Shown piece after piece: positions 1 through 8,340 of a stretch of DNA of 20,371 nt. The translations under genes and the position numbers were made by a program. The stretch is taken from positions 1 to 20,371 of the forward strand of contig JADLDX010000176.1 of assembly GCA_020846515.1 (NCBI GenBank), written 5' to 3'. This stretch comes from Pirellulaceae bacterium. GTDB lineage: Bacteria; Planctomycetota; Planctomycetia; Pirellulales; Pirellulaceae. Within the stretch, counting starts at the first letter, position 1. Every line of letters begins with the position of its first letter. The notes beneath the pieces were generated by a model. That model saw only the letters and a list, made by a program, of their open reading frames with translations, was not told the origin of the DNA and did no database searches.

Positions 1-2082
1 ACTCGATTGGAAAAAGAGTTTCAAGACCGTCATGCTTTCTGGACCACGGTTCGCGATCAGCACGCAGACGAGCCTGCCTTGACGAAGATTTTTGACACGA
101 TGCTGATAGACTCACGTGAACCGGCCGATGCTTTTTACAGCAGCCTCAAGGCGGATTTCTTACCTGCCATCAAAAGCGATAACGCAGACGAAGCAGCCAA
201 GGTATTTGATACAACACTCCGTCCAGCGTTCACGCAGCACCGACAGGTTATCGATAACGTAGTCGAGTTGGTCAATAACCATAACAAAGCGGTTGAAGCC
301 TCTGTTGAGTCGACCGTAACCACTAGTTCCTGGTGGTTGTTTGGATCGATCTTGGGAGCCGTGTCCATTGTTATTACAGCGGGCATCGTTGTCTTCCGTC
401 TGATTCGCGTCAGCGAAGTGCGCAACAAGGACTACGCTGGTCGATTTGCGGCTATCAATCGATCGCAAGCCACGATCGAGTTCGAACTCGATGGCAAGAT
501 CATTACCGCCAACGAAAACTTCCTCAACCTGACCGGTTATACGCTGTCCGAGATTGCTGGCCGTCACCATAGCATTTTCGTGAATCCTGTTTTCGCCAGC
601 TCACCCGAGTACAAACAGCTTTGGGGTTCACTTAATGCGGGTGAACCAGTCGGTGGCCAGTTTGAACGCTTCGGAAAATCCGGCAAGAGCTGTTGGATTC
701 AAGCGACCTACAATCCCATCCTGGATTCCAATGGCAAACCGTTCAAAGTGATCAAATTTGCCTTCGACATTACCGAAGCCAAACGCATGGAGTTCGAGAT
801 CGCCAAGCGGCAGCAGGAAGACGAACAGAATAGCATCGACATGCGCCGCCGCGTCAACGAAATCTTGACGGTGGCCGAACGCGTGGCCAAACGAGACTAC
901 TCCGAGACCTTGGCGGTACGTGGTAACGATGAAATCGGTAAGTTGGGTGAAGGACTGGCCAAGTTCTTTAGCGACAAGCAAGCCGGTGAAATAGCCGAAC
1001 AAGCTCGAGTCGATCGTGAACGCGCCGTGGCTGCGGAAGTCGAACGCAAAGTGGAAGTTGTGCTGCAAGTAGTCAATGCTGTGGCGGATGGCAAGTTTGA
1101 CGTGACGATTCCAAACCTGGGTGACGATGCGGTTGGTCAAGTCGCTACTGCCCTGGAAGCCGCTGTCGGGGCCATGAAGAATGCTCTGCAAGAAGTTAAT
1201 AACGTAGCTGGCACAGTCTCCACGGCCGCTCAGCAATTGACCGGCGTATCGCGTGAAATCTCTGCTGGTGCCCAATCTCAGGCGTCTAGCCTGGAAGAAA
1301 CTGCTTCCAGCCTGGAAGAGATCACTTCGACGGTTAAACAAAATACCGACAATGCTCAGCAGGCTCGGCAACTTGCCAATGGTTCAAGGGATGTAGCAGA
1401 ACGCGGTGGCGCGGTCGTACACGATGCCGTGCTGGCGATGGATGAAATCAATCAATCCTCCAAGCGGATTGCCGACATCATCACGACGATCGATGAAATT
1501 GCTTTCCAAACCAATTTGTTGGCCCTGAACGCGGCGGTCGAAGCTGCCCGTGCCGGTGAGCAAGGTCGTGGTTTTGCAGTAGTCGCCGCCGAAGTCCGCA
1601 ATCTGGCTCAGCGCTCCGCCAGTGCTGCTAAGGAGATCAAGACACTCATTCAAGATTCGGTCTCCAAAGTGCAGAACGGCACGGACTTGGTCAACAAATC
1701 TGGCCAAACCTTGGGCGAGATCGTGACTTCGGTAAAACGCGTCACGGACATTGTGGCCGAAATTGCCGCCGCCTCGAAGGAACAGTTGGTGGGTATTGAG
1801 CAAGTGAACAAAGCGGTTGCTCAAATGGACCGCGTTACCCAAGCCAACGCGGCTCAAACAGAAGAAATGTCAGGTACCGCTGGCATGCTGCTGACACACT
1901 CCGAGCAATTAGCCGAACTGGTCAGCCGTTTCCAACTGAGTAGCGAACAAGAAAAACCTCGCAAGCGTCGCGAATCGCCACGTGCGGGTACAACTAAGCC
2001 TGCCGAAGAGTCCGAGCTGCGGCCAGCACCCATCACCTTCTCATCCAACGTTGGTCATGAAGTGGGTGTCCTCGAGTTCTAA
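1..2082 (+). CDS. Methyl-accepting chemotaxis protein with PAS domain (5' partial)
   Basis: Transmembrane chemoreceptor controlling the CheA kinase. The frame is open to base 1, so the TTG at 7 is probably not the start and the first membrane segment lies outside the window. Numbering from that TTG, residues 1-107 are a helical extracytoplasmic sensor remnant, 108-133 a membrane segment and 146-260 a PAS domain of the BdlA/Aer-like type (NPILD and FAFDITEAKR at its end). Two HAMP-like stretches follow (about 280-325 and 350-395), then the coiled-coil signalling domain. The conserved hairpin tip is at 498-538 (IAFQTNLLALNAAVEAARAG). A methylation-type site with paired Glu (SLEETASSLEE) is near 427-437. 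A 40-residue charged linker ends in VLEF at the C-terminus, the same -3/0 spacing as a CheR-binding pentapeptide but with Val for Trp. The stimulus is unknown; the PAS cofactor cannot be read from sequence. Confidence 0.95.
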   Translation, partial: TRLEKEFQDRHAFWTTVRDQHADEPALTKIFDTMLIDSREPADAFYSSLKADFLPAIKSDNADEAAKVFDTTLRPAFTQHRQVIDNVVELVNNHNKAVEASVESTVTTSSWWLFGSILGAVSIVITAGIVVFRLIRVSEVRNKDYAGRFAAINRSQATIEFELDGKIITANENFLNLTGYTLSEIAGRHHSIFVNPVFASSPEYKQLWGSLNAGEPVGGQFERFGKSGKSCWIQATYNPILDSNGKPFKVIKFAFDITEAKRMEFEIAKRQQEDEQNSIDMRRRVNEILTVAERVAKRDYSETLAVRGNDEIGKLGEGLAKFFSDKQAGEIAEQARVDRERAVAAEVERKVEVVLQVVNAVADGKFDVTIPNLGDDAVGQVATALEAAVGAMKNALQEVNNVAGTVSTAAQQLTGVSREISAGAQSQASSLEETASSLEEITSTVKQNTDNAQQARQLANGSRDVAERGGAVVHDAVLAMDEINQSSKRIADIITTIDEIAFQTNLLALNAAVEAARAGEQGRGFAVVAAEVRNLAQRSASAAKEIKTLIQDSVSKVQNGTDLVNKSGQTLGEIVTSVKRVTDIVAEIAAASKEQLVGIEQVNKAVAQMDRVTQANAAQTEEMSGTAGMLLTHSEQLAELVSRFQLSSEQEKPRKRRESPRAGTTKPAEESELRPAPITFSSNVGHEVGVLEF

Positions 2083-2094
2083 CGGATAGATCGA

Positions 2095-2124
2095 TTGACA
2101 TAACCATGGTCGAGACAATCTTAT
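2095..2124 (+). promoter_or_regulatory. Sigma70-like promoter just after the MCP gene
   Basis: A perfect TTGACA at 2095-2100 is followed after 18 bp by TCTTAT (2119-2124), which matches 4 of 6 bases of TATAAT. It begins 12 bases after the MCP stop codon and points right. It could drive a short RNA ending at the hairpins at 2167-2228, or a long leader for the STAS gene at 2563. This is pattern matching only. Confidence 0.35.
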
Positions 2125-2130
2125 CTCTCC

Positions 2131-6695: not shown

Positions 6696-6722
6696 CTGCA
6701 GATTAGTGACCAAGTACCCCAG

Positions 6723-6755
6723 ACGGTTCATCGATAACGACAACTCATGAACCGT
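6723..6755 (+). other. Nine-bp inverted repeat between cheA and cheR-cheD
   Basis: ACGGTTCAT (6723-6731) and ATGAACCGT (6747-6755) are perfect inverted repeats separated by 15 bases. No T-run follows. The wide spacing fits an operator for a dimeric regulator as well as an RNA hairpin. It sits 46 bases before the cheR-cheD start. Confidence 0.4.
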
Positions 6756-6801
6756 GCAAGATGCACACTTACATACGGATTGAAAACGAAGGAACTGAGA
6801 C

Positions 6802-8340
6802 GTGATCGATGTAAACCTGAGCTTAGCCCCTAAGCAGTTTAAGCTAATACAGAATTTGATTTATCAACATGCGGGGATTGCCCTGCCAGATTCCAAGCAA
6901 ACGATGGTGCAAGGACGTTTAGCTAAACGACTACGCGCTTTGAAGCTGGATTCTTACGACCAATACATCAGCCATTTGGAGAAGGATAATGGCGGTCAGG
7001 AACAGATTGAGTTCATCAACTGCTTGACCACTAACAAGACCGACTTCTTTCGCGAGAATCATCATTTTCGGTTCTTGAGCGATACCCTGCTGCCTGAGTT
7101 GAAGCCCGCTTTGGAAGGCGGCAGTCAGAAGCTGAGAATCTGGAGTGCCGCTTGTTCCACTGGTGAGGAACCTTACTCGATCGCCATGACCTTGCGTGAA
7201 TCGCTTCGGGATTCGGTGGATATGTGCATTCTGGCATCGGACATCGACACCGCTGTCTTGGAACGCTGCCAGGCTGGCTGTTATCCGGCCGACCGCGTAG
7301 TTGATGTGCCCAAATATCTGCTGCATCGCTACTTTGATAAACAGAAAGACCATAGTGACGAAGCTAACTGTCAATGGCGAGTCAAAAACTCGTTGCGTGA
7401 TATGATCCGCTTTCGGCGGATCAATTTTCAAGATAGTCAGTGGCCAATTCAGACCAAGTTTGATGTGATCTTCTGCCGCAATGTCATGATCTACTTTGAC
7501 ACTGAGACACAGAGGAAGCTGGTCGAACGCTTTGCGAGCTACCTGCAGCCGGAAGGCCATTTGATTATTGGCCATTCAGAAACGCTGTCGGGAATCAATA
7601 ACAATTTTGAATTGGTTGGTAACACGGTTTATCGACTTAAACCGGGAGTCAATGAACGCACCAGCAGTTCCGAGACGTTGACGAAGGTAAGTTCCAGCGT
7701 CACCGCTGCGGCCGCAGTTCCGGCCAAGACGACCGCGCGAAGCACGCCGGCGAGTTCGAACGCGCCTCAAGTCAAAAGAGCCACAACAGGTTTCTCCCCT
7801 ACGAAAGAGCCTGTACATCCCATTATCGTGGGCGAAATCTATGGTAGCTACGAATCCAAATGGATCAGTACCCTGCTCGGTTCTTGCGTGTCAGCCTGTT
7901 TGTATGATGATCGCATGCAGATCGGTGGTATGAATCATTTTATGTTGCCATTGGGAAGTGCAGATTCGACGACCTGCGCCAGTTATGGCGTACATGCCAT
8001 GGAAATGTTAATCAATGCCTTGATGAAACTGGGTGCTGATCGTCGACGGCTGAAAGCCAAATTATTCGGTGGCGGCGCAGTGATTCGAACCAGCGAGACA
8101 CGCTGGAATGTCGGCGAACGAAACATCGATTTTGCCAAGAAGTTCCTGGAGGCCGAAGCGATACCACTGATCGCCAGCCATACCGGGGGCACACAAGCCA
8201 TGCACATTCGCTTTCACACACGCACTCACAAAGCACTGGTGAGAGTCTTGGATGATCGCCTGGCAGCTGATGTTGTCGAAGTCGAAAAACGCCAACCCAA
8301 ACCGCAATCAGCGCGTGACGATGCTGTGACTCTGTTCTAA
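6802..8340 (+). CDS. cheR-cheD: CheR-CheD fusion: receptor methyltransferase plus receptor deamidase
   Basis: One 512-residue protein carrying two adaptation enzymes. Residues 1-280 are CheR, the SAM-dependent glutamate methyltransferase of MCPs. It shows LTTNKTDFFRE, the SAM-binding WSAACSTGEEPYS (114-126), CRNVMIYFD (225-233) and GHSETL. A Ser/Thr/Ala-rich linker spans about 283-335. Residues 336-490 are CheD, the receptor glutamine deamidase that in other bacteria also binds CheC. Its catalytic Cys362 (LLGSC) and His379 (GGMNH) are 17 apart, as in Thermotoga CheD, and the Thr21 position is Ser356, next to Thr357. The protein ends in AVTLF. The start is GTG at 6802 with AAGGA (6789-6793) eight bases upstream. 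No in-frame stop or start separates the halves, so this is a true fusion. No cheC is seen nearby. Confidence 0.95.
   Translation: MIDVNLSLAPKQFKLIQNLIYQHAGIALPDSKQTMVQGRLAKRLRALKLDSYDQYISHLEKDNGGQEQIEFINCLTTNKTDFFRENHHFRFLSDTLLPELKPALEGGSQKLRIWSAACSTGEEPYSIAMTLRESLRDSVDMCILASDIDTAVLERCQAGCYPADRVVDVPKYLLHRYFDKQKDHSDEANCQWRVKNSLRDMIRFRRINFQDSQWPIQTKFDVIFCRNVMIYFDTETQRKLVERFASYLQPEGHLIIGHSETLSGINNNFELVGNTVYRLKPGVNERTSSSETLTKVSSSVTAAAAVPAKTTARSTPASSNAPQVKRATTGFSPTKEPVHPIIVGEIYGSYESKWISTLLGSCVSACLYDDRMQIGGMNHFMLPLGSADSTTCASYGVHAMEMLINALMKLGADRRRLKAKLFGGGAVIRTSETRWNVGERNIDFAKKFLEAEAIPLIASHTGGTQAMHIRFHTRTHKALVRVLDDRLAADVVEVEKRQPKPQSARDDAVTLF

What the first reader, a model, noticed from the sequence alone, without database searches (positions are those of the whole stretch)
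2062..8340. Four chemotaxis proteins share a C-terminal hydrophobic-x-x-Phe tail
The MCP ends EVGVLEF, the CheZ-like protein DSSIDLF, CheR-CheD DDAVTLF and CheA PTMLAGF, each directly before its stop. All have V/I/L at -3 and Phe at 0, and three have an acid at -6. Three follow a Ser/Ala/Pro-rich or charged linker; the CheA linker is short. The known CheR-tethering pentapeptide (xWxxF/Y) has its two key aromatics at the same -3 and 0 positions. None of the six complete proteins outside the cluster (9680-20014) ends in Phe. I infer a common short docking motif that gathers receptor, kinase, phosphatase and adaptation enzyme on one partner, possibly the CheR beta-subdomain, CheY or an unseen hub. 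Chance convergence cannot be excluded with four tails.
Basis: partly seen in the sequence, partly recalled or inferred. Interest (0 to 1): 0.7.

Follow-up and report, generated by a model that had tools for sequence, protein, structure and literature searches.

The report
Shared C-terminal docking tail in chemotaxis
Two chemotaxis proteins in this Planctomycete gene cluster, the receptor-modifying enzyme CheR-CheD and a CheZ-like phosphatase, end in the same short peptide, which is kept in distant bacteria and probably clips both enzymes onto a common partner, perhaps the messenger protein CheY.

Summary
The four tails are in the sequence as described, but they are not one motif. (1) CheR-CheD and the CheZ-like protein share a true motif, [V/I]-x-L-F, after a variable linker. 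It closes 81 of 120 listed CheR-CheD homologues and 41 of 43 CheZ-like homologues and recurs on CheD and CheZ-like proteins of Nitrospirota and Pseudomonadota. 1 of 238 background ORFs and none of 635 non-che neighbours end that way. (2) The receptor's VLEF is another conserved tail: Glu-Phe closes 119 of 120 listed homologues, most often after Val at -3. It is probably a variant of the CheR/CheB pentapeptide. (3) The CheA tail is not conserved and looks like chance. The shared partner is not proven. AlphaFold2 left the CheR-CheD tail free on its own CheR and CheD domains, but in a tail-linker-CheY chain from a Nitrospirota relative only the tail, of all residues before CheY, was ordered, as a strand, at low confidence. 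I favour CheY as hub; CheR is the main rival. The CheZ-like protein belongs to a largely receptor-like family with the CheZ signature D-x-x-x-Q, shared by one Vibrio McpA-like protein: such 'receptors' may be phosphatases.

The parts
1..2082 (+). MCP (PAS-HAMP-MCP signal, Aer2-like), 5' end cut by the contig start
2068..2079 (+). MCP tail VLEF: conserved receptor tail ending Glu-Phe, a different motif from the next two
   Evidence: 119 of 120 listed homologues end in Phe, Glu at -1 in all 119; -3 Val 51, Leu 18, Phe 18, Thr 17, others 15
2563..2859 (+). STAS-domain protein, no tail
2987..3970 (+). CheZ-like protein (327 aa)
   Evidence: 43 hits incl. itself; PF04344 CheZ 14.3 bits, below cut-off
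3737..3763 (+). CheZ-type signature MQFQDRVNQ (D255, Q259)
   Evidence: both invariant in 23 of 23; pattern in 42 of 43 hits
3956..3967 (+). CheZ-like tail IDLF: shared motif
3988..4350 (+). CheY, proposed hub; nearest solved relative is V. cholerae CheY4
4434..6647 (+). CheA; its tail LAGF (6633-6644) is not conserved
6802..8340 (+). CheR-CheD fusion (512 aa)
8326..8337 (+). CheR-CheD tail VTLF: shared motif
   Evidence: undocked in the AlphaFold2 monomer
8419..9522 (+). CheB (start may be the ATG at 8476), no tail

Best explanation
The [V/I]-x-L-F ending of CheR-CheD and of the CheZ-like protein is a short linear docking motif on a flexible tether (conservation shown by sequence; docking inferred). 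It tethers two enzymes that act on opposite ends of the pathway, the receptor deamidase/methyltransferase and the presumed CheY-P phosphatase, to one common partner (inferred). The most likely partner is the cluster's own CheY (or the like receiver domain of CheB), bound by strand addition (inferred from one structure prediction). CheY-P would then recruit its phosphatase and hold CheD, which couples output to adaptation. The receptor's VLEF tail is a separate tether, most likely for CheR/CheB. The CheA tail is incidental.
For: Conservation and rarity: 81 of 120 CheR-CheD and 41 of 43 CheZ-like end exactly in [VI]x[LVF]F; unfiltered, 90 of 120 and 42 of 43 end in LF, and of these 81 and 41 have Val/Ile at -3. 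Background: 1 of 238 ends in the motif, 2 of 238 in LF, 0 of 635 neighbours. Same motif on stand-alone CheD and CheZ-like proteins of Nitrospirota and Pseudomonadota. Co-occurrence (30 of 38 CheD places fetched): all 20 genomes with a tailed CheD also have a tailed CheZ-like protein; of 7 assessable with tail-less CheD, 4 lack it on CheZ-like too. The residue at -2 is nearly always of the same kind on CheD and CheZ-like in Nitrospirota (Thr, 35 of 39) and in Pseudomonadota (Glu/Asp, 28 of 29). CheY as partner: of 77 residues ahead of CheY only residues 21-27 (DNITLF and the next) reach pLDDT 50, and ITL forms a strand. By CheZ precedent, the C-terminal region of CheZ is described as the CheY-P-binding part (PMC7750401, passages). 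The window CheY's nearest solved relative is V. cholerae CheY4 (named), reported unable to bind FliM (PMC3774744, passages).
Against: The docked tail's block has mean pLDDT 57, the paired CheY strand is not shown by the output, there was no scrambled-tail control, and the chain was artificial (five stops read as Ser). CheY docking was tested for the CheZ-like tail only, not for CheD. In Planctomycetota CheD and CheZ-like mostly differ at -2 (Thr against Glu/Asp). Three genomes carry a CheZ-like tail variant without a CheD tail. V. cholerae Mlp44, in a group with E-W/V-E-x-F tails, is assigned to system III with CheR3 as possible tail binder (unpublished data in PMC11940527), which favours CheR.
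Confidence: 0.42

Rival explanations
1. CheR is the hub: the tails are variants of the receptor pentapeptide and bind the CheR beta-subdomain, bringing CheD and the phosphatase to CheR and competing with receptors.
For: S. meliloti CheT, with a DXXXQ phosphatase motif, forms a complex with CheR (PMC12654446, passages), and the CheT I read ends in DFEAF, a pentapeptide-like tail. Mlp44 of V. cholerae assigned with CheR3 among E-W/V-E-x-F-tailed proteins (PMC11940527). In most tailed loci whose receptor is visible, that receptor has an [FWYV]xxF tail.
Against: P. aeruginosa McpA, with Val in the second position, interacts with none of four CheRs (PMC7184735). CheD and CheZ-like tails do not take up the aromatic -3 of their receptors. 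The tail did not dock on its own CheR in AlphaFold2. Systems with pentapeptide-like receptors but no CheD/CheZ-like tail exist (L059, L061, L063). In S. meliloti CheD is tailed but the cluster receptor ends ..AGWRR.
Confidence: 0.25
2. Another array component (CheB linker or receiver domain, CheA, CheW) or an unseen factor is the hub.
For: CheA and CheB genes lie beside many of the tailed genes (loci partly cut by contig ends), and CheB2 of P. aeruginosa is described as recognising a pentapeptide (title and start of abstract of PMC7698151).
Against: No positive evidence; not tested here.
Confidence: 0.25
3. No common partner: generic hydrophobic C-termini, a degradation signal or a sliding-clamp (QLxLF) motif.
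For: The last residues resemble the clamp motif as I recall it. Near-terminal matches are less rare than terminal ones: 5 of 238 background ORFs have the motif within 14 residues of the end.
Against: The terminal ending is nearly confined to CheD and CheZ-like. Gln at -4 in 2 of 81 and 0 of 41. Several tails continue past the Phe (VELFVDAEQV, ITLFEE), so a free carboxylate is not needed.
Confidence: 0.06

Closest known systems
CheR/CheB-tethering pentapeptide of receptors (xWxxF, xFxxF/Y)
   Same: C-terminal, four to five residues, on a flexible linker, aromatic at 0, key hydrophobic at -3, in chemotaxis proteins.
   Different: The shared tail has Val/Ile at -3 and Leu at -1 and sits on CheD and a phosphatase-like protein, not on the methylated receptors; most receptors of the same loci keep their own [WFY]xx[FY] or ..EF tail.
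C-terminal CheY-binding region of CheZ
   Same: End of a CheZ-type protein after a linker.
   Different: Described as a helix, residues 199-214 in E. coli (PMC7750401, passages); here a four-residue core predicted as a strand, and shared with CheD.
Conserved C-terminus of McpA-like receptors of F7 systems
   Same: Val in the second position of the pentapeptide, highly conserved, role unclear (PMC7184735 section 11); the Vibrio protein here that I take as McpA-like ends EGEVELF.
   Different: The sections and passages I saw do not link it to CheD or to a phosphatase signature.
CheT (NF047973)
   Same: DxxxQ protein encoded next to a tailed CheD; ends in an aromatic tail.
   Different: 124 aa, no Pfam match and so no receptor hairpin recognised, tail DFEAF of the receptor type.

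Membership tests
Receptor pentapeptide (x-[HFYW]-x2-[HFYW], definition in PMC7184735) | Aromatic/His at -3 and 0 | tested here: not met
   Window MCP, CheZ-like and CheR-CheD have Val/Ile at -3. Of 14 planctomycete MCPs of more than 250 aa counted, 13 meet it and the window's does not (a shorter, cut one in L040 ends GVLEF too).
Receptor pentapeptide | Binds CheR beta-subdomain | not testable with these tools
   No complex prediction or assay; the CheR-CheD tail is undocked in the monomer.
CheZ | PF04344 above curated cut-off | tested here: not met
   14.3 bits against 30.7.
CheZ | Active-site D-x-x-x-Q preceded by (A)xxFQ | tested here: met
   SMQFQDRVNQ; [LMI]Q[FY]xDxxxQ in 42 of 43 hits; Ser for the Ala of AXXFQ.
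CheZ | C-terminal CheY-binding segment | tested here: inconclusive
   Tail of a Nitrospirota relative ordered next to CheY at low confidence.
F7 chemosensory cluster | STAS, CheY, CheA, CheW, Aer2-like receptor, CheR, CheD, CheB together | tested here: inconclusive
   All but a separate CheW found in the window; MCP best NCBIfam match is Aer2, below cut-off.
Sliding-clamp binding motif (recalled QLxLF) | Gln at the first position | tested here: not met
   2 of 81 and 0 of 41.

The most novel reading that the evidence does not exclude
In F7-type chemosensory systems from Planctomycetota to Pseudomonadota, a C-terminal [V/I]-x-L-F peptide on CheD and on a receptor-like CheZ-type phosphatase clips both onto a CheY4-type CheY by strand addition. 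So-called McpA-like receptors are membrane-tethered CheY phosphatases, the missing phosphatase of these pathways, and CheY-P controls both its own removal and the receptor deamidase through one face.
Probability: 0.25. Interest if true: 0.82.

Novelty: new variant of a known kind. Interest (0 to 1): 0.6.

Why it matters
If true, it defines a second class of chemotaxis tether beside the receptor pentapeptide, placed on the deamidase and the phosphatase. It gives a testable reason for the conserved, unexplained C-terminus of McpA-like proteins. It also proposes where CheY4-type regulators, for which no cheZ was found in the cluster (PMC3774744, passages), get a phosphatase. If CheY is the hub, output and adaptation are coupled by one peptide site, a role played by CheC-CheD in other bacteria (recalled).

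Tried and rejected
CheA as a member of the motif: rejected, tail not conserved. One motif for all four: rejected. Sliding clamp and degradation signal: see rivals. Intramolecular docking on CheR or CheD: not seen. A profile search of the CheZ-like family against PDB sequences listed no CheZ (E up to 10, 33 sequences; best hit PorL/GldL at 0.0014). A tblastn search of plasmids with an alphaproteobacterial CheZ-like protein returned mostly generic MCPs among the 40 rows listed of 4266 records and was not used. A mixed CheZ-like/CheY alignment (A3) misplaced the tails on CheY columns and was not folded; the tail-linker-CheY alignment A4 was. Structure searches only confirmed CheR, CheD and CheY folds; the tail was not covered by the alignments listed. 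The genome search with the CheZ-like profile found 7 of 396 genomes of the order, with only 5 candidates scored per genome in the rows shown.

Counts that lean on selection. The entropies were taken inside the motif-matching rows, so I repeated them unfiltered and quote those. The motif table fixes Val/Ile at -3 by its pattern; for -3 I rely. The 39 loci were found with the words V[MV]SMQFQD and M[SNG][RH]QLN[LMS]DI, so MQFQD is mostly given there, but the Gln at +4 and the tail are not part of the pattern. MCP homologues were found by words from residues 600-693, which include the tail. CheD proportions are not population rates: many loci were chosen by similarity to a tailed CheD, at most 30 best-scoring loci per search were fetched, and ORFs were sought by similarity to the window proteins.

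Papers: PMC7184735 (passages and section 11), PMC11940527 (passages and section 15); PMC12654446, PMC2577667, PMC9855816, PMC7750401, PMC3774744, PMC7534058 (passages only); PMC7698151 (listing and start of abstract, and a find with no hits for McpA, CheD or VELF). Garcia-Fontana 2014 and the CheT paper were not read; they are cited through the above. Nine paper searches were answered; no title or abstract start in their capped listings names a CheD tail or a phosphatase role for McpA-like proteins. Subscription papers are mostly not held.
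Full report
What was checked. The window is a contig of a draft genome (G000:C176); the homologues that carry a name are Pirellulaceae and other Planctomycetes. It holds an MCP cut by the contig start, a STAS protein, a CheZ-like protein, CheY, CheA, a CheR-CheD fusion and CheB in one direction, a set like the F7 clusters described for gammaproteobacteria (PMC7184735, passages).

Conservation. The 120 listed of 7947 CheR-CheD hits and all 43 CheZ-like hits, the window's own included, were compared. 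81 of 120 and 41 of 43 end exactly in [VI]x[LVF]F, with Leu at -1 in all of these. 15 more CheR-CheD have the motif followed by up to 14 residues; 24 do not fit, many of them near variants (AVLF, VTIF, ATLF, GILF, AELFVD), some probably truncated or frameshifted. Without a filter, 90 of 120 and 42 of 43 end in LF, with -3 Val 68, Ile 13, Ala 6, other 3, and Ile 37, Val 4, Phe 1. Entropies at 0, -1, -2 and -3 over all rows are 1.6, 1.5, 2.3, 2.3 (CheR-CheD) and 0.2, 0, 0.7, 0.7 (CheZ-like), against 3.3-3.9 and 2.1-3.3 at -5 to -14. Background: of 238 ORFs of 150 aa or more from 400 kb of two relatives, 9 end in Phe, 2 in LF, 1 in the motif, and 5 have the motif within 14 residues of the end. 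Of 635 distinct non-che ORFs around the clusters none ends in it. These ORFs are mechanical, not curated genes.

Beyond Planctomycetota. A scan of named genomes with the CheZ-like profile gave 39 loci, mostly Nitrospirota, with three planctomycete, four alphaproteobacterial and two Geobacteraceae loci. In one search the tail (up to three residues may follow) stands on 16 of 34, 14 of 25 and 24 of 41 CheD-bearing proteins of Planctomycetota, Nitrospirota (with Geobacteraceae) and Pseudomonadota, and on 9 of 9, 25 of 31 and 3 of 3 CheZ-like proteins; two more with the tail, one of them the Vibrio protein below, fell in the MCP class. These are not population rates, as loci were chosen by similarity. 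CheD falls in two classes: 22-39 residues after the domain with the tail, or mostly 1-23 without. Three CheD with the motif further from the end or with Met at -3 (L108, L111, L185) are counted as tail-less. CheA (41), CheB (63) and stand-alone CheR (56) have no such tail. Pairing within a genome (30 of the 38 CheD places were fetched): 20 with tailed CheD all have a tailed CheZ-like protein. Of 8 with tail-less CheD, four lack it on CheZ-like, three have a variant (NVMIFK, NVLIFK, NVTIF) and one is cut off; in two loci no CheD ORF was parsed. By hand, the chance of this split is about 0.002 if genomes were independent, which they are not.

Two tail classes. In the same loci receptors end in [WFY]xx[FY]: 13 of 14, 23 of 23 and 7 of 12 counted as MCP in the three groups. 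Of the 5 others in Pseudomonadota two carry the shared tail (EGEVELF, DDTIELF), two end ..AGWRR as the S. meliloti cluster receptor does, and one ends ..NYRV. The -3 is Trp in 7 of 7 aromatic-ending receptors of Pseudomonadota, Phe in 23 of 23 of Nitrospirota and in 12 of 14 of Planctomycetota, and -1 is mostly acidic. No CheD (0 of 100) or CheZ-like protein (0 of 43) of these loci ends in [FWY]xx[FYW], and -1 of their motif is Leu in 86 of 93. The window's own receptor clade departs from the pentapeptide: 119 of 120 listed homologues (of 180 hits) end in Glu-Phe, and -3 is Val 51, Leu 18, Phe 18, Thr 17 and others. So the receptor tail is real but of its own kind. If CheD and CheZ-like used the receptor pocket of CheR, -3 should move with the receptors; it does not.

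The CheZ-like family. In the Nitrospirota and alphaproteobacterial members scanned it carries an MCP signalling hairpin (PF00015) followed by MQFQDxxxQ, a [TS][ML]xxxR stretch (alignment) and, mostly, the tail. The window protein has no recognised hairpin but keeps MQFQDRVNQ. The pattern with Asp and Gln is kept in 42 of 43 hits, and occurs in 1 of 120 window-type MCPs. Pfam CheZ matches three of seven proteins scanned, all below cut-off. A Vibrio protein next to CheB in an F7-like cluster (L109:10662-11858) has the hairpin, LQFTDIIVQ and the tail EGEVELF. By place and tail I take it as McpA-like: PMC7534058 says such receptors neighbour F7 clusters (passages), and PMC7184735 calls their conserved C-terminus of unclear role. 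Only this one gammaproteobacterial example was examined.

Partner. The AlphaFold2 model of CheR-CheD (34 rows) has mean pLDDT 46 and 33 in the last two blocks: no dock on its own CheR or CheD. A chain of the last 26 residues of a Nitrospirota CheZ-like protein, the read-through gap and its CheY (18 rows) has CheY at about 78-92. Of the 77 residues before it only 21-27, the tail itself, reach 50, with ITL as a strand, although the gap holds other hydrophobic stretches. This is a specific but low-confidence signal; the paired strand is not shown. The window CheY is nearest to 4hnr/4h60 (8e-39, next 9.6e-25), which names as V. cholerae CheY4. CheY4 is described as phosphorylated but unable to bind FliM, and no cheZ lies in its cluster (PMC3774744, passages). 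On the other side stand the CheT-CheR complex (PMC12654446, passages), CheT's tail DFEAF and the assignment of Mlp44 to system III (PMC11940527); against CheR, the failure of P. aeruginosa McpA to interact with four CheRs (PMC7184735).

Verdict. Shown: a rare, conserved C-terminal motif shared by CheD and a CheZ-type protein family in three bacterial groups, distinct from the receptor tail; the CheA tail is incidental as far as the CheA seen here tell. Inferred: a common partner. Proposed at about 0.4: CheY. The phosphatase role of McpA-like proteins is a prediction from signature and context.

Noticed in passing
L036:4890-5201 (own genome, contig C694): A second, partial CheD in the same genome, about 39% identical to the window's over 85 residues, also ends in AVTLF, on a contig edge.
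   Followed up: partly
window 2068-2079 and P0164-P0283: Receptors of this clade have mostly replaced the aromatic at -3 of the pentapeptide by Val/Leu/Thr (Phe in 18, Tyr in 2 of 119) while keeping Glu-Phe, so their CheR pocket may have changed.
   Followed up: partly
L107:9663-10037: S. meliloti CheT, reported to bind CheR, ends in the pentapeptide-like DFEAF, a simple candidate for its CheR contact.
   Followed up: no
L109:10662-11858; L041-L076: Receptor-like proteins with an MCP hairpin also carry the CheZ-type D-x-x-x-Q signature, a combined receptor-phosphatase architecture below Pfam's CheZ cut-off.
   Followed up: partly
L173-L202: Planctomycete CheD comes in two classes: one with a C-terminal extension and tail, one of about 165 residues without.
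   Followed up: yes
window 8419-8476: CheB is listed from a GTG at 8419, but its receiver domain starts at the ATG at 8476, in frame with CheR-CheD.
   Followed up: no
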